From Flavobacterium urocaniciphilum (lineage in GTDB: Bacteria; Bacteroidota; Bacteroidia; Flavobacteriales; Flavobacteriaceae): a stretch of 64,000 bases of DNA. The position numbers and the translations under genes were made by a program. Under the pieces are notes generated by a model. It was not told the origin of the DNA. It did not search any database and was given only the letters and a program-made list of their open reading frames with translations. Below, piece by piece: positions 1,168 to 10,557 of this stretch. Numbering within the stretch: position 1 is the stretch's first letter; the number at the start of each line of letters is the position of its first letter. Where the stretch lies: NCBI RefSeq assembly GCF_900110615.1, contig NZ_FOEI01000010.1, positions 1 through 64,000 of the forward strand, given 5' to 3'.

Positions 1168-2256
1168 ATGAAAAGTATTTTAAAAGATAGTTCAATTGCT
1201 TTTTTAGAAGCCTATTTAAATAATGCCTCACCTACAGGATACGAAAGTGAAGGTCAGAAATTATGGATGGATTATATGAAACCTTATGTTGACACATTCA
1301 TAACAGATAATTATGGTACAGCAGTAGGAGTAATAAATCCAGACGCACCTTTTAAAGTAGTAATTGAAGGACACAGTGATGAAATTTCTTGGTACGTTAA
1401 CTATATAACTGATGATGGTTTAATATATGTAATAAGAAATGGAGGAAGTGATCATCAAATTGCACCCTCAAAAAGAGTAAACATTCATACCAAAAAAGGT
1501 ATTGTTCGTGGTGTTTTTGGTTGGCCAGCAATTCACACACGAGGAAGAAGCGGTAAAGCTGAAGAAACAGCCAAAGTTGAAAACATATTTATTGACTGTG
1601 GATGTAGTTCAAAAGAAGAAGTTGAAAATTTAGGTGTACATGTAGGATGTGTGATTACGTATCCTGATGGATTTGAAATTTTAAATGGAAATAAATTCGT
1701 TTGTAGAGCCATTGACAACAGAATGGGTGGTTTCATGATTGCGGAAGTGGCAAGACTGTTAAAAGAAAACAAGAAAAAGCTACCTTTTGGATTATATGTT
1801 GTAAATGCAGTTCAAGAAGAAATTGGTTTACGTGGAGCAGAAATGATTACACAAAGTATCAAGCCAAACATTGCAATTGTAACGGATGTTTGTCACGACA
1901 CCAATACACCAATGATTGATAAAAAAATTGAAGGTGATTTAAAAATGGGTAAAGGTCCGGTTATTGCCTATGCGCCAGCCGTGCAAAATAAATTAAGAGA
2001 TTTAATTACCGATACGGCAGAAGCTAAAAAAATTCCATTTCAACGTCATGCGACTTCAAGAGTTACCGGGACAGATACTGATGCTTTTGCTTATAGTAAT
2101 GGCGGTGTACCAAGTGCTTTAATTTCGTTACCGTTACGTTATATGCATACAACTGTAGAAATGGTTCACCGAGATGATGTAGAAAATGTAATTAAATTAA
2201 TATACGAATCGTTATTAAAAATTGAAAACAATCACGATTTCTCTTATTTTAAATAA
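1168..2256 (+). CDS. M42 family metallopeptidase (glutamyl aminopeptidase type)
   Basis: A 362-residue cytosolic M42 peptidase, a family of zinc or cobalt aminopeptidases that trim peptides, often as large tetrahedral complexes. The metal ligands are visible in order: His69 (EGHSDE), Asp183 (CRAIDNRMGG), the catalytic Glu pair 217-218 (VQEEIG), Asp240 (VTDVCHD) and a His near 327 (MHTTVEMVH). The length is normal for the family. The stop codon overlaps the start of the following sensor kinase gene by one base (TAATG), so the two may be translationally coupled, although a link in function is not obvious. Substrate preference cannot be read from the sequence. Confidence 0.92.
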   Translation: MKSILKDSSIAFLEAYLNNASPTGYESEGQKLWMDYMKPYVDTFITDNYGTAVGVINPDAPFKVVIEGHSDEISWYVNYITDDGLIYVIRNGGSDHQIAPSKRVNIHTKKGIVRGVFGWPAIHTRGRSGKAEETAKVENIFIDCGCSSKEEVENLGVHVGCVITYPDGFEILNGNKFVCRAIDNRMGGFMIAEVARLLKENKKKLPFGLYVVNAVQEEIGLRGAEMITQSIKPNIAIVTDVCHDTNTPMIDKKIEGDLKMGKGPVIAYAPAVQNKLRDLITDTAEAKKIPFQRHATSRVTGTDTDAFAYSNGGVPSALISLPLRYMHTTVEMVHRDDVENVIKLIYESLLKIENNHDFSYFK

Positions 2257-4184
2257 TGAATAAAATTGCCTTATCAATATTTTTTTCGCTTTTAACAGCA
2301 CTGAGTTTTTCTAACGAAATAATTAAGAAAAAATTCAACTCTAAAAATAATATTGATAAGGTTACTTTTTTTAGAAGTTTAAGCAATGAAGATAAAGTTG
2401 AAAACATCACTTTTTTCAAAAAGGAATTTTCCAGCTTATTGAATCAAAATTCTAAAAACTATACTCACAAAAAACATTTCCTTTTTGTTCTTGGGTTAAT
2501 TAATCAGATACAAAATGAAAATTTAGAAGCCATTTCTAAATTTAACGACTTAATTTCAGACAAAGCTTTCAATTTATCAGAAAGAGAAACCATGGATATT
2601 TATGTAGCCATGCAAGAATGCTACTTAAAACTTAATTTATATTCCAAGGTATTTGACATTAACAAAAAAATAAACACCTTAATTATAAATGGTGTTGATT
2701 ATCCCTTATGGAGTTATAATATACAAAGTAGACTCTATTTACAATTACAACAATATGACAAAGCGATTTCTCAATTGAAAAAGGAAATTCAATTGTTATA
2801 TAAAAATACGAAAAGAGATTCTTTAATTATTCCTTCGGCTTATAATGATTTAGGATTCTATTATCATTTAAATAAAGACTTCAAAAACGCTTTATTGTAT
2901 TACAACAAATCGATTCAAACAGCAAATAGAAGTTTGAAATCTACAAATCCATCAGCATATAAAAGCATAATACTAAGTTCACAAAGTAATATGGCGAGTT
3001 TATATTTAGAAATTAAAGAATACAATAAAACCATTTCGATTTTAAATAATGAGGTTTTAAATAAAGTTGAAAACAAAAACACTCCTATATATATACAAAG
3101 TTTATTGTTGTTAGGCGATGCTTATTTAAAAACTAATAATGTAAAGAAATCAGAAGAAATTATCAATTCGTTAAAACAAATTTGCTGTTTAGAAGACATT
3201 ACTTTAAAAATTCAGTTTTTAGAAATTCAGGCTTCCTATTTCAAGAAACTAAAAGACTATAAAACTTCCTTAGAAATCACTTCAGAAATTAAACATTTAA
3301 AAGATTCTTTGCTTACAGTTCAAAATTTGAATCTTTTGAAAAGTACCGAATTAAACTATTTTATTGAAAATAAAGAAAAGGAAGTTGCTACTAAAAATTT
3401 AATTATTGAAGAAAAGGAAAAAACAAACCTTATAATAATTATAATAGGATTGATTGCTTTATTAGTGACAGGAACAATAGCCTTACGAAATAACCGCCGC
3501 AAAAGAATTGAAATTGAAAAAATGAATGTTTCCATTTCTAATAAAAAAGAAGAATTAAAAACATCTTTACACGAAAAAGAGTTATTATTAAAGGAAATTC
3601 ATCATAGAGTAAAAAACAATCTTCAAGTTATTTCTGGGATTTTAAACATACAGAATAATACTATTACTGATGAAAAAACCAAAAAATTGTTAGTTGAAGG
3701 TCAGGATAGAATTCAAACTATTGCATTGTTACATAAAACCATGTATCAAAATGAGAATTTCAATATAGTAGATTTTAAGACGTATATTAATGAATTGATT
3801 TCATATATTAAAAAAGCAAATATCAATGATCATAAAAACATCGAAATACATATAGAAATTGAAAACATTCGATTGAATATAGATACCGCTATTCCTTTAA
3901 GTTTGATCATCAATGAAATCATTACGAATAGCTTCAAACATGCATTTATTGGTAAAAACGAAGGATTGATTTCAATTTCCATTTTAAAAACAAATAACGA
4001 ATCCTATCAATTAATTATAAAAGATAACGGAATTGGATTACCAGAAAATCTTAACATCGATAGAAATAGTAAAACGGTAGGTTTCGATTTAATTTATGGA
4101 TTAAGTCAGCAAATTGAAGGTAAAATTGAAACTTCAAATGATCACGGAACCTTAATTAAAATTCAATTTAAAGAACAAAAATGA
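2256..4184 (+). CDS. TPR sensor histidine kinase, HisKA_2 type (module 1)
   Basis: A 642-residue membrane sensor kinase. It has an N-terminal signal sequence, a helical TPR-like sensor region (about 70-350) expected in the periplasm, a coiled linker, one membrane span (391-410), and then a cytosolic kinase. The phosphoacceptor lies in a HisKA_2 dimerisation motif with His449-His450 (EIHHRVKNNLQ), followed by a HATPase domain with an N box (NEIITNSFKHAF) and a G1 box (DNGIGLP). The gene overlaps its response regulator by 4 nt (ATGA). It aligns without gaps over the first 220 residues with the kinase at 6469-8385 (both have RDSLIIPSA at 188-196), so the two are tandem paralogues. The signal sensed is unknown. 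Confidence 0.9.
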   Translation: MNKIALSIFFSLLTALSFSNEIIKKKFNSKNNIDKVTFFRSLSNEDKVENITFFKKEFSSLLNQNSKNYTHKKHFLFVLGLINQIQNENLEAISKFNDLISDKAFNLSERETMDIYVAMQECYLKLNLYSKVFDINKKINTLIINGVDYPLWSYNIQSRLYLQLQQYDKAISQLKKEIQLLYKNTKRDSLIIPSAYNDLGFYYHLNKDFKNALLYYNKSIQTANRSLKSTNPSAYKSIILSSQSNMASLYLEIKEYNKTISILNNEVLNKVENKNTPIYIQSLLLLGDAYLKTNNVKKSEEIINSLKQICCLEDITLKIQFLEIQASYFKKLKDYKTSLEITSEIKHLKDSLLTVQNLNLLKSTELNYFIENKEKEVATKNLIIEEKEKTNLIIIIIGLIALLVTGTIALRNNRRKRIEIEKMNVSISNKKEELKTSLHEKELLLKEIHHRVKNNLQVISGILNIQNNTITDEKTKKLLVEGQDRIQTIALLHKTMYQNENFNIVDFKTYINELISYIKKANINDHKNIEIHIEIENIRLNIDTAIPLSLIINEIITNSFKHAFIGKNEGLISISILKTNNESYQLIIKDNGIGLPENLNIDRNSKTVGFDLIYGLSQQIEGKIETSNDHGTLIKIQFKEQK

Positions 4185-4885
4185 CACAACATCCTATAAA
4201 AATATTAGTTGTTGAAGACGAATACATTACTCAAAAAACCATTTGTAATTATCTTACTGAAATTGGTTATGAAGTAATTGACACATCAATGAATGCAGCA
4301 GATGCGATTGAAATTATAAAAAGCAAACCTGTTGATTTTGTTATTTTGGATATTAATATAAAAGGAGAACAAAACGGTATTTGGTTAGGGAATAATATTG
4401 CTGAAAATTTCAATTTACCTCATTTATATTTAACCGCCTATTCTGATACCGAAACCATTAAAAACGCCTTACAATCAAATCCATTAGGTTATTTGGTAAA
4501 GCCTTTTCAAAAGCACGATTTATTTACTGCTATTGAAATTGCCATTTTAAATTTTAATAAAAGTCAGAATTCTAATGAAAAGCAGCTTTTAGTAAAACAT
4601 AATGAAGTGTATACTAAAATTAATTTCGATTCGATATTATATATTGAGAGTGATAAAAATTATTTGATTATAAATTGTGAAGAGGATGTTTATCGTTATC
4701 GTTCCACCATTTCAGATTTTGAAAATATCATGCCCAATTATTTCATCAAAACGCATAAAGGTTTTATTATAAACACTCAAAAGGTGAAAGAATTTTCCAA
4801 TTCTACTGTAATAATTAATGATAATAAAATACCGATTTCAAAATCTCACAAGGATTTGGTTTTAAACATTTTACATTCAATTTAA
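4181..4885 (+). CDS. LytTR family response regulator (module 1)
   Basis: A 234-residue regulator with a receiver domain (1-125) and a LytTR DNA-binding domain (about 140-234). The acidic pocket (VEDE, 11-14), phosphoacceptor Asp57 (VILDINIKG) and Lys107 (YLVKPF) are all present, so it should be phosphorylated normally by the adjacent kinase. The LytTR part shows the usual IESDKNYL and FIKTHKGFIIN motifs. LytTR proteins typically bind direct repeats spaced by two helical turns; exactly such a pair lies just downstream, at 4887-4917, ahead of the surface-protein gene, which is its likely target. Tandem paralogue of the regulator at 8378-9091. Confidence 0.93.
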   Translation: MTQHPIKILVVEDEYITQKTICNYLTEIGYEVIDTSMNAADAIEIIKSKPVDFVILDINIKGEQNGIWLGNNIAENFNLPHLYLTAYSDTETIKNALQSNPLGYLVKPFQKHDLFTAIEIAILNFNKSQNSNEKQLLVKHNEVYTKINFDSILYIESDKNYLIINCEEDVYRYRSTISDFENIMPNYFIKTHKGFIINTQKVKEFSNSTVIINDNKIPISKSHKDLVLNILHSI

Positions 4886-4886
4886 C

Positions 4887-4917
4887 CATATTTCCCTAAA
4901 TTCGATTCATATTTCCC
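4887..4917 (+). promoter_or_regulatory. Putative LytTR operator, 21-bp-period direct repeat (module 1)
   Basis: The decamer CATATTTCCC occurs at 4887-4896 and again at 4908-4917, an exact 21-bp period. A weak -7-like box (TGATTTTC, 4946-4953) follows 28 nt after the second repeat, with no TTG at the normal -33 position, as expected of an activator-dependent promoter. The same arrangement recurs at 9108-9138. Binding by the adjacent regulator is inferred. Confidence 0.6.
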
Positions 4918-4976
4918 AGTTTTTTTAAAACTTAAAAATTATATCTGATTTTCGTAGTTAAAATAACTACTAAGTC

Positions 4977-6317
4977 ATGAAAAAACTACTATTTACTTTA
5001 CTTTTCCCTTTATTTATACAGGCTCAAGTTGGTATAAACACCACAACACCCGACGCTAGTTCAATGCTAGATATTAATGCTACTGATAAAGGTTTATTAA
5101 TTCCAAGAGTTTCAATTCCAAATTTAAATGCAGCAGCACCTATAACTTCACCTGCAACAAGTTTGTTAGTTTACAACACCAATACAACAACTGGTGCTGG
5201 ATTTTATTATTGGGATGGAACAAAATGGACACCTTTTACTGGTGGCACTAGTCATTGGACTAAAGTCGGAAATGACATTTATAACAATAACACCGGAAAT
5301 GTTGGTGTAGGAACTACTACTCCAACTACAAAATTTCATGTAGAAAATGTTGGATCACCTTCTACCTTATTAAATCAGAATTTTGAAACCAACGCCATTA
5401 CTCCATTTACTACTGGTGGAAATGCAAACTGGGCAACTCAAACTACTGTAAAATATGCTGGAAGTTATGCTGCAAAATCGGGAACAATTGCCGATAATCA
5501 AAGTACACAAATGTCGCACACAATTGTAATACCTTCTGGTGGAGCCACATTAAGTTTTTTCTATAATGTAAGTAGTGAATCTAATTATGATTATTTACGT
5601 TTTTATATAGATGGGATTCAACAAAATCAGTGGTCTGGAGCAATTGGTTGGACACAACAAACCTATATATTAGCAGCAGGATCTAGAACATTAAGATGGG
5701 AATACAGTAAAGATTCTTCATCAAGTTCGGGTTCAGATGCAGCATATATTGATAATATTTCAATTGTAACTGCTGCACCACCTGCAATGAGAATTGTAGA
5801 TGGAAATCAAGCCAGTGGAAAAGTATTAACTTCAGATGCTAGTGGTAATGCTTCTTGGCAGGCAATTACCAATAGTAGTATTTCAGATATTCCTATTATG
5901 GCTTCGGTTCAAGGAATGGTTATTCCAATTTGTAATGATGTAAGTGTAGGATCTACGGGTAGTTTTAGCGTAACTATAAAAGGAGTTCCAACTACAGTAA
6001 GTTGGGAAGTTTTAGGCAGACAACAAAAAAGTGGTTCCCAATTAGTAAGCGGAAATCAATTAGCACGTGCTGAAGTATTAGCAGAAAGACTTCAAGTTAG
6101 ATATAATTTTAGTCCGCAATTACCCTTTAATCCAAATGGTTTCATTTTTAGTGCGAACAACAATAGTGGATTTCCAGATGTTTTTGTTTTAAATTATGCT
6201 AATAAATCGCAATCTTCAGTAACAATTAATATTGCTAGAGTAGAGCGTTTTGCAGAACAATCGGGTGCCAATTGTTGGACAGGACAATTTTATTTTGATG
6301 CTTTTATTACGAATTAA
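4977..6317 (+). CDS. Secreted surface protein with C-terminal conserved domain (module 1)
   Basis: A 446-residue exported protein of unknown function. A signal peptide ends near residue 16 (LFIQA/QVGIN). Next come the QVGINTTTP and LDINATDKGLLIPR motifs common at the start of Bacteroidetes surface and fibre-like proteins, a repeat of that theme (GVGTTTPTTKFHVEN), a middle beta-rich domain (about 130-265, with SFFYNVSSESNYDYLRFYID) resembling jelly-roll or MAM-like adhesion domains, and a C-terminal domain ending FYFDAFITN. It is Thr/Asn-rich and has no T9SS sorting domain. It lies downstream of the kinase/regulator pair and the 21-bp repeats. Its paralogue is at 9205-10557. An adhesin role is a guess. 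Confidence 0.75.
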   Translation: MKKLLFTLLFPLFIQAQVGINTTTPDASSMLDINATDKGLLIPRVSIPNLNAAAPITSPATSLLVYNTNTTTGAGFYYWDGTKWTPFTGGTSHWTKVGNDIYNNNTGNVGVGTTTPTTKFHVENVGSPSTLLNQNFETNAITPFTTGGNANWATQTTVKYAGSYAAKSGTIADNQSTQMSHTIVIPSGGATLSFFYNVSSESNYDYLRFYIDGIQQNQWSGAIGWTQQTYILAAGSRTLRWEYSKDSSSSSGSDAAYIDNISIVTAAPPAMRIVDGNQASGKVLTSDASGNASWQAITNSSISDIPIMASVQGMVIPICNDVSVGSTGSFSVTIKGVPTTVSWEVLGRQQKSGSQLVSGNQLARAEVLAERLQVRYNFSPQLPFNPNGFIFSANNNSGFPDVFVLNYANKSQSSVTINIARVERFAEQSGANCWTGQFYFDAFITN

Positions 6318-6468: not shown

Positions 6469-8385
6469 TTGAGCTTAAAAAAAACATTACTATTATTCTT
6501 TTTTTTCACTTTTACTTTAAGTAATGGTCAGATTAATTCTGTTCAAGATTTAAAAAAAATGAATTTGGAAAAAAAATGCACTTATTATATAGAATTAAGT
6601 AATGAAGAAAAAATAAAACATATTGGTGTATTTGAAAAAGAATTTCAAAAAATAGACATTGAAAATCTCCACAAAAAAGAATTACTTAATTTAAGGCTTT
6701 CACAAGGTTTAATTGAAAAAGCAAAAGGCAATTACATACAATCTATATTAAAAATTAATGAAGTTTTAATAGATGATAGTCCAACCATACTTCCAAAACA
6801 TTTATTAATAGTATACCTTTCTTTATACGAATCGTATTTAGAACTCAATATTTTTTCAAAAGCTATTGAAATAAATTCTAAAATTGAAGAGCTTTCCAAA
6901 AAAAATGTTTCAATACCATTATGGGATTATAACTTAAAAAGTAAGTTATTTTTTAAAATGAAAAAATATAAAGAAGCGACTATTCAATTAGCTAATGAAA
7001 TTGAATTGCTTAAAAAAAATCCTTTAAGAGATTCTTTAATTATTCCATCAGCTACAAATGATTTAGGTTTATATTATTATGTAATAAGCGATTATAAAAA
7101 AAGCGAAATCAATTTTAATAAGTCGATTCAATTAGCAAAGCGATCATTAGATACATTATCTACAAACTATAAAGAATTATATTTTACAGTTCAAAATAAT
7201 TTAGCTCGATTAAAAGTACGTCAAGCTAAAAATGAGGATGCCATACAAATTATTCTCAAAAATGTATTTTCTAAAATTAAACCAGGAGCAGAATTATACA
7301 CTGAAGCTTCCTACATATTGGCAAATGCTCAATTAAACATTAAAGATTTTAAAAATTTTAATGTCACACAACTTTATAATGCAAAACATCAAGATGATCA
7401 TCCGAATTATAAATACCAATACATCAGTTTTCAAATTAATTATTTTTCTTTAATTGGTAATTATAAAAAAGCATTAGAACTACAAAAAGAGTTATACAAT
7501 TTACGTGTTTCAGAAATTCAAAATGAAAATTCAAAACAATCTAAAAGTCAAGAAATAGATTATCTTTTAATAGAAAATGAGAATACCATTCGTCAAAAAA
7601 ACAACGAATTAGAAGATCGTAATATTAAAATATTAATATTTCTAATTTCCTTTTTTGCATTAACAATTATCATTATTTCATATTTATATATCAATATTCT
7701 TAAAAGAAAACGTCAAATTGAAAAAATGAATTTGGCAATTTCTAATCAAAAAAGTGAAATTGAACAATCCCTAAAGGAAAAGGAAATATTATTAAAAGAA
7801 GTTCATCATCGAGTGAAAAACAATTTGCAAATAATTTCAAGTATCTTAGACTTACAATTATTAAGTACAAACAATACTGAACTTATAGACAAATTAAAAG
7901 AAGGACAAAATCGTATTCAAACTATTGCTTTAATACATAAAAACATGTATCAAAAAGAACTATATAGTGAAGTTAATATTAGAGAATATATTGAAGAATT
8001 GATTCAGCAAATTCAACAAGCTCAAAATAACAGAATTGAAATAGAAATTAAATACAACATTCAACCCGTTTTATTATCCTTAGATATTACTATTCCTTTA
8101 AGTTTGATTGTTACTGAAATTATAAGTAATTCTTATAAACATGCTTTTAAAGAAGTACTAAAAGGAGAACTATTAATTTATTTTGAAGAAGTTTCGCCTA
8201 AAAAATATATTTTAAAAATTTCAGATAATGGAAAAGGATTCGATATAAATGAAATTGACACTAATGATTCAATTGGTTTAGATTTAATTCATGGATTATC
8301 AGAACAAATAAACGGTGAAGTTTCTATTGATTCAAATTTAAACAAAGGCACAACTATAACTATTATTTTTTCTTCTCATGATTAG
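6469..8385 (+). CDS. TPR sensor histidine kinase, HisKA_2 type (module 2)
   Basis: A 638-residue paralogue of the kinase at 2256-4184 with the same layout: signal sequence, periplasmic TPR-like region (about 70-345), membrane span (about 388-410), HisKA_2 motif with His446-His447 (EVHHRVKNNLQ), and HATPase boxes (TEIISNSYKHAF, DNGKGF). The start is TTG: it gives an intact signal peptide (MSLKKTLLLFFFF), there is no ATG nearby, and the first internal ATG (residue 31) would remove the signal. It overlaps its regulator gene by 8 nt. The sensor halves of the two kinases have drifted much more than their kinase cores, which suggests different inputs. Confidence 0.9.
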   Translation: MSLKKTLLLFFFFTFTLSNGQINSVQDLKKMNLEKKCTYYIELSNEEKIKHIGVFEKEFQKIDIENLHKKELLNLRLSQGLIEKAKGNYIQSILKINEVLIDDSPTILPKHLLIVYLSLYESYLELNIFSKAIEINSKIEELSKKNVSIPLWDYNLKSKLFFKMKKYKEATIQLANEIELLKKNPLRDSLIIPSATNDLGLYYYVISDYKKSEINFNKSIQLAKRSLDTLSTNYKELYFTVQNNLARLKVRQAKNEDAIQIILKNVFSKIKPGAELYTEASYILANAQLNIKDFKNFNVTQLYNAKHQDDHPNYKYQYISFQINYFSLIGNYKKALELQKELYNLRVSEIQNENSKQSKSQEIDYLLIENENTIRQKNNELEDRNIKILIFLISFFALTIIIISYLYINILKRKRQIEKMNLAISNQKSEIEQSLKEKEILLKEVHHRVKNNLQIISSILDLQLLSTNNTELIDKLKEGQNRIQTIALIHKNMYQKELYSEVNIREYIEELIQQIQQAQNNRIEIEIKYNIQPVLLSLDITIPLSLIVTEIISNSYKHAFKEVLKGELLIYFEEVSPKKYILKISDNGKGFDINEIDTNDSIGLDLIHGLSEQINGEVSIDSNLNKGTTITIIFSSHD

Positions 8386-9091
8386 TAAAAAATTAAACAT
8401 ATTGATTATTGAAGATGAATACATCACTCAAAAAAGCATTGAAAAAAACTTAATCGTTTTAGGTCATAATGTAAAAGGACGCGCTATGGATTATGACAAA
8501 GCGATTTCCATCTTAAATGAAGAAAACATCGATTTTGCTATTATCGACATTAATATTAAAGGACAAAAAAAAGGAACTGATATTGGGACATATATTACCA
8601 ATCATAAAAAAATTCCTTTTGTTTATTTAACTTCTTATTCTGATACAAAAACAATTCGCTCAGCAATTGAAACCGAACCTTATGGTTATTTAGTAAAACC
8701 ATTTCAACAACACGATTTACTAACAGCAATTGAAATAGCTTTAATTAATTTTAATAAAGAAATAGGAAAATCAGAACTTCCTCAAATTCAAATTAAAATT
8801 GGAGATAAATCCATTAAACTGAATCTCGACGCCATTTTATTTGTAGAAAGTGATAAAAATTACGTTAACATTCATACCAATAAAGAAATTTACAAATACC
8901 GAAATACGCTTCATGAATTTCAAGAAAATTTACCTTCTAATTTTGTTCAAACCCATAAAAGCTTTATTGTAAATTTTAATTGTATTACTTCTGTTTCAAA
9001 AAATTTAATAGAGATAAATGAATTTAAAATTCCAATTTCAAAATCATTTAAAGAAAATATTGATATATATCTTACAAATACAAAAAAATAA
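8378..9091 (+). CDS. LytTR family response regulator (module 2)
   Basis: A 237-residue paralogue of the regulator at 4181-4885. The receiver domain keeps the acidic pocket (IEDE, 11-14), Asp57 (AIIDINIKG) and Lys107 (YLVKPF) at identical positions, and the C-terminal LytTR domain keeps VESDKNYV and FVQTHKSFIVN. It overlaps the kinase gene by 8 nt, so the pair is surely co-transcribed. The direct repeats at 9108-9138 begin only 16 nt after its stop codon and probably form its target site in front of the second surface-protein gene. Crosstalk with the first pair is possible because the kinase and receiver cores are so similar. Confidence 0.93.
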   Translation: MISKKLNILIIEDEYITQKSIEKNLIVLGHNVKGRAMDYDKAISILNEENIDFAIIDINIKGQKKGTDIGTYITNHKKIPFVYLTSYSDTKTIRSAIETEPYGYLVKPFQQHDLLTAIEIALINFNKEIGKSELPQIQIKIGDKSIKLNLDAILFVESDKNYVNIHTNKEIYKYRNTLHEFQENLPSNFVQTHKSFIVNFNCITSVSKNLIEINEFKIPISKSFKENIDIYLTNTKK

Positions 9092-9107
9092 AATAGACGT
9101 TTGATGA

Positions 9108-9138
9108 ATTCGTCCCTATAACGCATTCATTTGTCCCT
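9108..9138 (+). promoter_or_regulatory. Putative LytTR operator, 21-bp-period direct repeat (module 2)
   Basis: ATTCGTCCCT (9108-9117) and ATTTGTCCCT (9129-9138) repeat with a 21-bp period. A TAATTTTG -7 box (9167-9174) starts 29 nt after the CCC of the second repeat, against 28 nt in module 1. The extended second repeats of the two modules (ATTCATATTTCCC and ATTCATTTGTCCC) share 11 of 13 bases. Confidence 0.6.
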
Positions 9139-9204
9139 CAAAAATTAAAGTCGTAACAACTCCTAATAATTTTGATGATTAGAACAACACAAATCATCTC
9201 AATT

Positions 9205-10557
9205 ATGAAAAAAGTTTTATTTTTATTTCTACTGCCTTTACTAACACTTGGTCAAGTTGGAATAAACACAACTACTCCAAACAGCAGTTCAATACTCGAC
9301 ATAGAAGCAACTGACAAAGGTATATTAATTCCAAGAATTTCAATTCCTAACTTAAGTAGTGCGTCACCGATTACTTCTCCAGCTACTAGTTTGTTAGTTT
9401 ATAATACCAATACCACTACTGGAACTGGGTTTTATTTTTGGAATGGCACTAACTGGGCTCCTTTAGGCGGAGCGGATAATGATTGGATTTTTTCTGGCAA
9501 CAATATTTATAATGGCAATACAGGCAATGTAGGAATTGGAACTGCTACTCCAACTACAAAATTACATGTTGAAAATTCTGGACCAGCAGTAAGTATTTTA
9601 AATGAAAATTTTGAAGCGAATTCATTAGGAACACTAACAACTTCTGGAAGTCAGAATTGGTATGTACAAAATACCCAAGTTGGAGCCGGAACTTACTCAG
9701 CAGCTTCTGGTGGAATTACCCATAATCAACAAACCAATTTAACGGCAACAGTTACCTTAACTTCACCTGCAGTTTTAACTTTTAAATATAGAGTAAGTTC
9801 AGAAGGTAACTTTGACTATCTTCGATTTTTTGTAAATGGTACACAAATTACTCAATGGTCAGGAAATGTATCTTGGGCAACGTATACTTATAATTTACCA
9901 GCTGGTAATCATACTTTAAATTGGAGATATTTAAAAGATGGATCTCAAAATTCTGGAGAAGACAAAGCATATTTAGATGATATATTAATTACTGGTACAA
10001 CTTCAAGTTCTGTTATTCGTATTGTTGATGGAGCACAAGCAGCAGGTAAAGTTTTAACATCTGATGCGAATGGTAATGCTTCATGGCAATCCTTAACAAA
10101 TAGTTCAATTCCAAATCTACCACAAATAATAGCGGTGAGCGGATTTACCATTCCATCTTGTTTTAATTATAGTGTAAATTCAACTGGAACATTTACAAAA
10201 TCCATACTAGGAACGAATACAACTATAACTTGGAAAATATTACAAAAACAAACGGCAACAAACACAGTTACCGCAACTACTCCAACTGGAACTGCTCAAG
10301 TTGCTTCTGGACCGGTATTAGCGGAACGTTTACAAGTTGAATATACGTTTAATCCGCCGCTTCCGTTTTCACCAAATGCAATTATGTTTACTGTAAACAA
10401 CACCTCATCTTTACCAGATGTATTTACTTTAAACTATGCTTCAAAATCAACAAATTCAATTGTAGTGAATATAGCAAGATCAGACTCATATGGAAATTTC
10501 ACTACAGCGTCTTGTTGGGCTTCACAATTTTATTTCGATCTATTTATAACCAATTAA
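9205..10557 (+). CDS. Secreted surface protein with C-terminal conserved domain (module 2)
   Basis: A 450-residue paralogue of the protein at 4977-6317, clearly alike over its whole length: signal peptide (MKKVLFLFLLPLLTLG/QVGIN), QVGINTTTP and LLVYNTNTTTGTGFYFWNG motifs, a middle beta-rich domain (SSEGNFDYLRFFVNG), and a C-terminal domain ending FYFDLFITN. I start at the ATG at 9205 rather than 9172, because only the later start places the signal peptide at the N-terminus and the -7 box at 9167-9174 would overlap the earlier one. The function is unknown; a secreted or cell-surface location is inferred from the signal peptide and the family. Confidence 0.75.
   Translation: MKKVLFLFLLPLLTLGQVGINTTTPNSSSILDIEATDKGILIPRISIPNLSSASPITSPATSLLVYNTNTTTGTGFYFWNGTNWAPLGGADNDWIFSGNNIYNGNTGNVGIGTATPTTKLHVENSGPAVSILNENFEANSLGTLTTSGSQNWYVQNTQVGAGTYSAASGGITHNQQTNLTATVTLTSPAVLTFKYRVSSEGNFDYLRFFVNGTQITQWSGNVSWATYTYNLPAGNHTLNWRYLKDGSQNSGEDKAYLDDILITGTTSSSVIRIVDGAQAAGKVLTSDANGNASWQSLTNSSIPNLPQIIAVSGFTIPSCFNYSVNSTGTFTKSILGTNTTITWKILQKQTATNTVTATTPTGTAQVASGPVLAERLQVEYTFNPPLPFSPNAIMFTVNNTSSLPDVFTLNYASKSTNSIVVNIARSDSYGNFTTASCWASQFYFDLFITN

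What the first reader, a model, noticed from the sequence alone, without database searches (positions are those of the whole stretch)
4887..4917. Direct repeat with 21-bp period upstream of the first surface-protein gene
CATATTTCCC occurs twice with an exact 21-bp period, directly behind the LytTR regulator gene and 60 bp ahead of the surface-protein start. LytTR regulators such as AgrA bind pairs of short direct repeats spaced by two helical turns. The -7-like box follows 28 bp later and there is no TTG at -33, so the promoter should depend on an activator.
Basis: partly seen in the sequence, partly recalled or inferred. Interest (0 to 1): 0.75.

Follow-up and report, generated by a model that had tools for sequence, protein, structure and literature searches.

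The report
LytTR operator before surface-protein gene
Two copies of a ten-base DNA word, exactly two helix turns apart, sit where a neighbouring regulator protein most likely grips the DNA to switch on a surface-protein gene, and related bacteria keep the same layout, so it is probably a real switch of a known general kind.

Summary
The repeat is real: CATATTTCCC at 4887-4896 and 4908-4917, period 21, its exact pair found once in the 2.85-Mb genome, which by its relatives is a Flavobacterium. A 10-bp exact repeat at 21 bp arises in 0.055% of shuffles of this gap. Comparative evidence supports the LytTR reading. Promoters of nine orthologous cassettes and of the paralogous cassette next door (9107-9137) have two CCC-ending sites, 21 bp apart in 8 of these 10 and 20 bp in 2. 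Over 144 regions downstream of response-regulator genes, 21 bp is the best self-match offset in 33, against a mean of 3.4 for other offsets. A shared two-site motif fits best at 21 bp, consensus TTC[AG]T[CA]CCAA. Exact -7 boxes (TAnnTTTG) near such sites start 37-38 nt after the proximal site in 24 of 25 cases; in the window the weak box GATTTTCG lies at +37. I read it as a two-site LytTR operator by which the adjacent kinase-regulator pair activates one secreted, CBM-like protein from a promoter without -33 element. Such operators are known; this is a new member. The signal is weak in more distant Bacteroidota (6 of 70). Binding is untested.

The parts
4887..4896 (+). Distal half-site CATATTTCCC (core TATTTCCC 4889-4896, about -70 to -63)
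4908..4917 (+). Proximal half-site CATATTTCCC (core TATTTCCC 4910-4917, about -49 to -42), 21 bp from the distal one; ortholog L139 has the same proximal core
4947..4954 (+). Weak -7 box GATTTTCG, +37 from the proximal core; no TTG at -33
   Evidence: (position rule); -7 box at -12 to -5 from a passage of PMC9723704
4181..4885 (+). LytTR response regulator (RR1), presumed binder
   Evidence: Pfam Response_reg 1e-19, LytTR 1.4e-15
2256..4184 (+). Sensor histidine kinase: TPR repeats, one hydrophobic stretch near residue 392, HisKA_2 + HATPase_c; overlaps RR1 by 4 nt
4977..6317 (+). Presumed regulated gene: 446-aa protein with a signal-peptide-like start; no Pfam or NCBIfam match; middle domain of a modest-confidence model resembles CBM61/CBM22 and gingipain cleaved-adhesin domains
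9107..9116 (+). Module 2 distal half-site AATTCGTCCC
9128..9137 (+). Module 2 proximal half-site CATTTGTCCC, 21 bp later
9167..9174 (+). Module 2 -7 box TAATTTTG (6 of 6), +37 from the proximal core
8378..9091 (+). Module 2 LytTR response regulator (RR2), 44% identical to RR1
6469..8385 (+). Module 2 HisKA_2/TPR histidine kinase
9205..10557 (+). Module 2 secreted-like protein, 56% identical to the module 1 target (start taken at the ATG, not the upstream TTG of the ORF list)

Best explanation
The pair is a two-site LytTR operator. Inferred mechanism: the kinase encoded just upstream senses an unknown signal and phosphorylates RR1; two RR1 LytTR domains bind the two 21-bp-spaced half-sites on one DNA face at about -70 and -49; they recruit RNA polymerase to a promoter that has only a weak -7 box and no -33 element, and so switch on the adjacent secreted CBM/adhesin-like protein. 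Shown here: genes, repeat, conservation, spacing, fixed distance to the -7 box in related loci. Inferred: binding, phosphorylation dependence, activation, signal.
For: Offset test: 21 bp best in 33 of 144 regions (other offsets mean 3.4, max 7; 40 rounds of shuffles mean 4.1, max 9) and in 16 of 54 clusters at 50% identity, next best 4. Two-site motif fit: total 1299 at 21 bp, 1136 at 20, 901-1058 at the other spacings from 13 to 35. -7 box: exact TAnnTTTG starts at +37 or +38 in 24 of 25 occurrences over 60 loci. Nine orthologous promoters and module 2 all have two CCC-ending sites, 8 of 10 at 21 bp, although RR identity to RR1 falls to 50% among the orthologs. Module 2 has its own pair and a full-match -7 box at +37. 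RR1 orthologs in G009 and G284 are followed by no target and no pair, and no full-length target is found in those genomes. A pair of this kind at 21 bp precedes homologous targets in Flavobacterium supellecticarium (L289) and a Kordia MAG (L232).
Against: Spacing is 20 bp in two of the nine orthologs (L135, L158) and in L223. Module 1's core differs from the pooled consensus at 3 of 8 letters, and module 1 is not among the 75 listed best fits. Its -7 box matches only 4 of 6 letters. Hold-out: offset 21 best in 6 of 70, tied with 19, 34 and 45; fixed-motif pairs at 21 in 5 of 70, tied with 32 and 45. In the main set the offset-21 rate is no higher where a secreted-like gene follows (11 of 49) than in the convergent/none class (18 of 72). 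Coding sequence also favours 21 through codon periodicity (16 of 144). No binding data.
Confidence: 0.88

Rival explanations
1. The pair is a LytTR operator but works as a repressor site, or RR2 or another LytTR protein rather than RR1 is the main binder.
For: RR1 and RR2 are 44% identical and both cassettes have CCC-ending cores; CoxC, a LytTR protein, represses from three repeats over -35 (passages of PMC11347149).
Against: The sites end upstream of -40 with no -33 element, the geometry expected of activators; three own cassettes have different pairs, each without a second close copy in the genome.
Confidence: 0.15
2. A chance repeat in AT-rich DNA.
For: Short repeats are common; any exact repeat of 10 bp or more at 10-40 bp has P about 0.014 in shuffles of this gap.
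Against: Orthologs and the paralog keep the layout while the bases between change; offset and -7 statistics.
Confidence: 0.02
3. An operator for an unrelated regulator family that happens to sit behind LytTR genes.
For: No protein-DNA evidence exists here.
Against: The pairs follow LytTR genes of several clades; word and spacing resemble published LytTR sites (YpdB GGCATTTCAT, AlgR CCGTTCGTC, RcoM TTCNNGCA; passages).
Confidence: 0.05

Closest known systems
YpdB operator (E. coli, PyhjX)
   Same: Two direct repeats of a 10-nt word; LytTR sites in general are 9-11 nt repeats with 11-13 nt spacers (passages of PMC4847170). Own cassette L024 has GCATTTCA twice at 21 bp, close to GGCATTTCAT.
   Different: Different kinase class (HisKA_2/TPR here), Bacteroidota-type -7 box, target is an adjacent surface protein; the module 1 word is TATTTCCC.
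AlgR site CCGTTCGTC (Pseudomonas aeruginosa)
   Same: Word close to the pooled TTCGTCC motif (passages of PMC4064291; L119 has GTCGTTCGTCCC).
   Different: The algD sites in the passages read are single words far apart (-470, -394, -45), one in opposite orientation.
LytTR Regulatory Systems, including Bacteroides 'LRS-like' operons
   Same: Direct repeats mostly separated by 12 bp; in Bacteroides 11-bp repeats with an 11-bp gap upstream of a TATCTTTG box (passages of PMC6193735).
   Different: Those are autoregulatory operons with a membrane protein as partner; here an HK-RR pair and a downstream target.
RcoM/CoxC triple-repeat operators
   Same: Three direct repeats about two helical turns apart (passages of PMC11347149), like three-site arrays in some Flavobacterium loci (L132, L148, L155, L164).
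   Different: The window has two sites; CoxC represses.
AgrA (S. aureus)
   Same: LytTR domains on two direct repeats upstream of promoters with poor elements (passages of PMC4227749).
   Different: AgrA's FFRCHNS motif reads FIKTHKG in RR1.

Membership tests
LytTR two-site operators | A LytTR-domain regulator is encoded nearby | tested here: met
   Pfam LytTR 1.4e-15 in RR1
LytTR two-site operators | Two direct repeats of 9-11 nt, about two helical turns apart | tested here: met
   10-nt repeats, period 21
LytTR two-site operators | Located upstream of a target promoter | tested here: inconclusive
   A -7-like box lies at +37 of the proximal core as in related loci, but it matches 4 of 6 letters and no start site is mapped
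LytTR two-site operators | Conserved in orthologs as a functional site would be | tested here: met
   Two CCC-ending sites in 11 of 11 promoters compared (window modules included); 21 bp in 9, 20 bp in 2
LytTR two-site operators | Match to a LytTR consensus word | tested here: inconclusive
   3 of 8 core letters differ from the pooled Flavobacterium motif; published LytTR words share no common consensus (passage)
LytTR two-site operators | Protein binds the DNA and regulates the gene | not testable with these tools
   Needs gel shift, footprint or reporter

The most novel reading that the evidence does not exclude
Flavobacterium carries many self-contained signalling cassettes (kinase, LytTR regulator, one adjacent secreted or membrane target) that share one promoter grammar: two or three TTC[AG]T[CA]CCA-like sites every 21 bp, the last one 37-38 nt before the -7 box, with the word diverging between paralogs so that circuits stay separate. 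This would let targets of LytTR regulators be assigned from sequence alone, including in-trans targets such as a GH92 mannosidase gene.
Probability: 0.55. Interest if true: 0.6.

Novelty: new member of a known kind. Interest (0 to 1): 0.45.

Why it matters
My paper searches (open-licence PubMed Central only; most listed papers seen as listings, not opened) showed no described DNA-binding word for flavobacterial LytTR response regulators; the nearest seen was the Bacteroides LRS-like repeats (PMC6193735, passages). A fixed operator-to-promoter geometry makes target prediction for this regulator family testable, and here it links a kinase-regulator pair to one surface protein.

Tried and rejected
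Tried and weak: the relaxed pattern TCCC-N17-TCCC gave 16 own-genome hits against 3 for the reversed control; by the coarse check, 11 of the 16 lie in open frames, and of the other 5 (L002, L003, L006, L014, L016) three stand upstream of a secreted-like gene: both modules and the GH92 gene. GH92 as a second target: of the 9 GH92 promoters of relatives read, the pair is found in 1 (G224, L203) and not in 8, so it is left as a candidate. A claim for all Bacteroidota is rejected: the hold-out is weak. Relatedness and codon periodicity were checked. A first -7 count used a tie-break towards +36, hand-set anchors for L023 and L139 and hand removal of L026, L032, L088, L096 and L167; it was redone without these, and the count of 24 of 25 is from the second. 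Module 1 itself is not in that count (its pair score fell below the cut). The target's structure model has low mean confidence (pLDDT 67.9, pTM 0.47); only its middle domain is interpreted.

Selection. The 145 loci behind the 144 regions are: own LytTR hits, automatic loci, and 40 further listed places from each of these two calls, picked by hand from the listings, mostly for near-full-length matches, before their downstream DNA was read. Five duplicates were left out (L028, L098, L108, L110, L111); L112 was dropped for N. Some may not be LytTR proteins (e.g. L047). The hold-out of 70 is 42 of the 80 loci (dropped: 9 that looked like genomes already used, and partial or non-Bacteroidota matches) and 28 of the 30 (dropped: the own locus L312, and L329, close to a contig end).

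Full report
Observation. CATATTTCCC stands at 4887-4896 and 4908-4917, period 21, between the LytTR gene (4181-4885) and the secreted-like gene 4977-6317. Shuffling the 91-bp gap gives an exact 10-bp repeat at 21 bp in 0.055% of 20,000 trials. The exact pair occurs once in the 2,848,114-base genome; allowing 3 mismatches adds one hit.

Surroundings. Upstream are a HisKA_2 kinase with TPR repeats, a start that looks by eye like a signal peptide and one hydrophobic stretch, then RR1 overlapping it by 4 nt. The target has no Pfam or NCBIfam match; a modest-confidence model (pLDDT 67.9) has a middle domain like CBM61 (TM-score 0.70 by target length) and gingipain cleaved-adhesin domains. A second cassette follows with the same gene order (RR2 44%, target 56% identical). 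Its gap holds AATTCGTCCC and CATTTGTCCC, again 21 bp apart, with no second copy within 3 mismatches.

Orthologs. Nine more cassettes have RR1 orthologs at 50-79% identity and targets at 60-91%. Each of these nine promoters, and both window modules, has two sites ending in CCC; the distance is 21 bp in 9 of these 11 and 20 bp in 2 (L135, L158). In the alignment the second TCCC is invariant and the first is invariant in two C columns, since the 20-bp rows lie one column off; the bases between vary. In G009 and G284 the RR1 ortholog is followed by no such gene and no pair, and the target is not found full length in those genomes (best matches E 9e-4, and parts of a 794-aa frame at E 3e-17). The named search places close relatives in Flavobacterium terrigena, F. 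bernardetii, F. profundi, F. saliperosum, F. cauense and others, so the genome is taken as Flavobacterium. Pairs of this kind with homologous targets also occur in F. supellecticarium (L289, 21 bp), a Kordia MAG (L232, 21 bp) and Flavobacterium sp. LMO8 (L223, 20 bp).

Statistics. In 144 regions of 110-130 bp downstream of regulator genes, the best self-match offset is 21 in 33; other offsets average 3.4, maximum 7; 40 rounds of shuffles average 4.1, maximum 9. By clusters at 50% identity it is 16 of 54, next best 4; at 60% 22 of 72; at 70% 20 of 93. A coding control gives 16 of 144 at 21 and 12 at 42, from codon periodicity, so offset counts in coding DNA are not evidence; some of the regions tested are themselves coding. 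A two-site motif fitted at each spacing from 13 to 35 scores 1299 at 21, 1136 at 20 and 901-1058 elsewhere; consensus TTC[AG]T[CA]CCAA. Without hand edits, 60 loci with pair score 12 or more hold 25 exact TAnnTTTG boxes starting between +10 and +69 of the proximal site; 21 start at +37 and 3 at +38. With one mismatch allowed, 49 of 88 start at +36 to +38.

Hold-out. In 70 further loci, offset 21 is best in 6, tied with 19, 34 and 45 (mean-score z 3.9), and the fixed motif pairs best at 21 in 5, tied with 32 and 45. Of 17 with pair score 10 or more, exact boxes are at +38 twice and +48 once; with one mismatch, 7 of 19 are at +36 to +38. Split by a coarse gene-order rule, offset 21 is best in 5 of 20 loci with a codirectional gene and 1 of 50 others (Fisher p 0.006); in the main set the split shows no difference (14 of 60 against 19 of 84). 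The grammar is thus strong in Flavobacterium and patchy beyond.

Mechanism. With the -7 box at -12 to -5 (passage of PMC9723704), the proximal core begins at about -49 and the distal at -70; no TTG is near -33. Inferred: RR1 binds both sites on one face and activates. Three-site arrays occur in other clades: L132, L148, L149, L155, L164.

Comparison. Paired direct repeats with 11-13 nt spacers are the known LytTR pattern (PMC4847170, passages), and Bacteroides LRS-like repeats before a TATCTTTG box are in print (PMC6193735, passages). So this is a new member of a known kind; the flavobacterial word and the +37/+38 rule were not met in my searches (listings and some passages).

Candidate second target. 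A GH92 mannosidase gene on contig C15 has TCCC words 21 bp apart, 56 nt before its ATG; the pair is found in G224 (86% identical protein) and not in the other 8 GH92 promoters of relatives read.

Noticed in passing
4954-4970: GTAGTTAAAATAACTAC, a 7-bp inverted repeat overlapping the last base of the -7 box; TAACTAC occurs in 7 of the 11 promoters compared.
   Followed up: no
L016 (own contig C15:306167-306191, minus): TCCC pair at 21 bp, 56 nt upstream of a secreted-like GH92 mannosidase gene; possible in-trans target; also in L203, not in 8 other relatives.
   Followed up: partly
L024 (own contig C15:261937-261970): CATTTCAAATACA twice at 21 bp behind another LytTR gene, before a secreted-like gene; one copy in the genome within 3 mismatches.
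   Followed up: partly
L132, L148, L149, L155, L164: Three half-sites in a row at 21 bp behind LytTR genes.
   Followed up: partly
L046, L051, L052, L057, L070: TTCATGACA-like pairs at 21 bp between a LytTR gene and an 81-83 aa ORF that looks like a membrane protein.
   Followed up: no
1168-2253: M42 peptidase gene directly ahead of the kinase; also near the RR1 orthologs of G009 and G284, with a small extra gene between.
   Followed up: no
L202 (own contig C4:2147-3359): Two small secreted-like proteins sharing the C-terminal domain of the module 1 target, without an obvious 21-bp pair upstream by eye.
   Followed up: no
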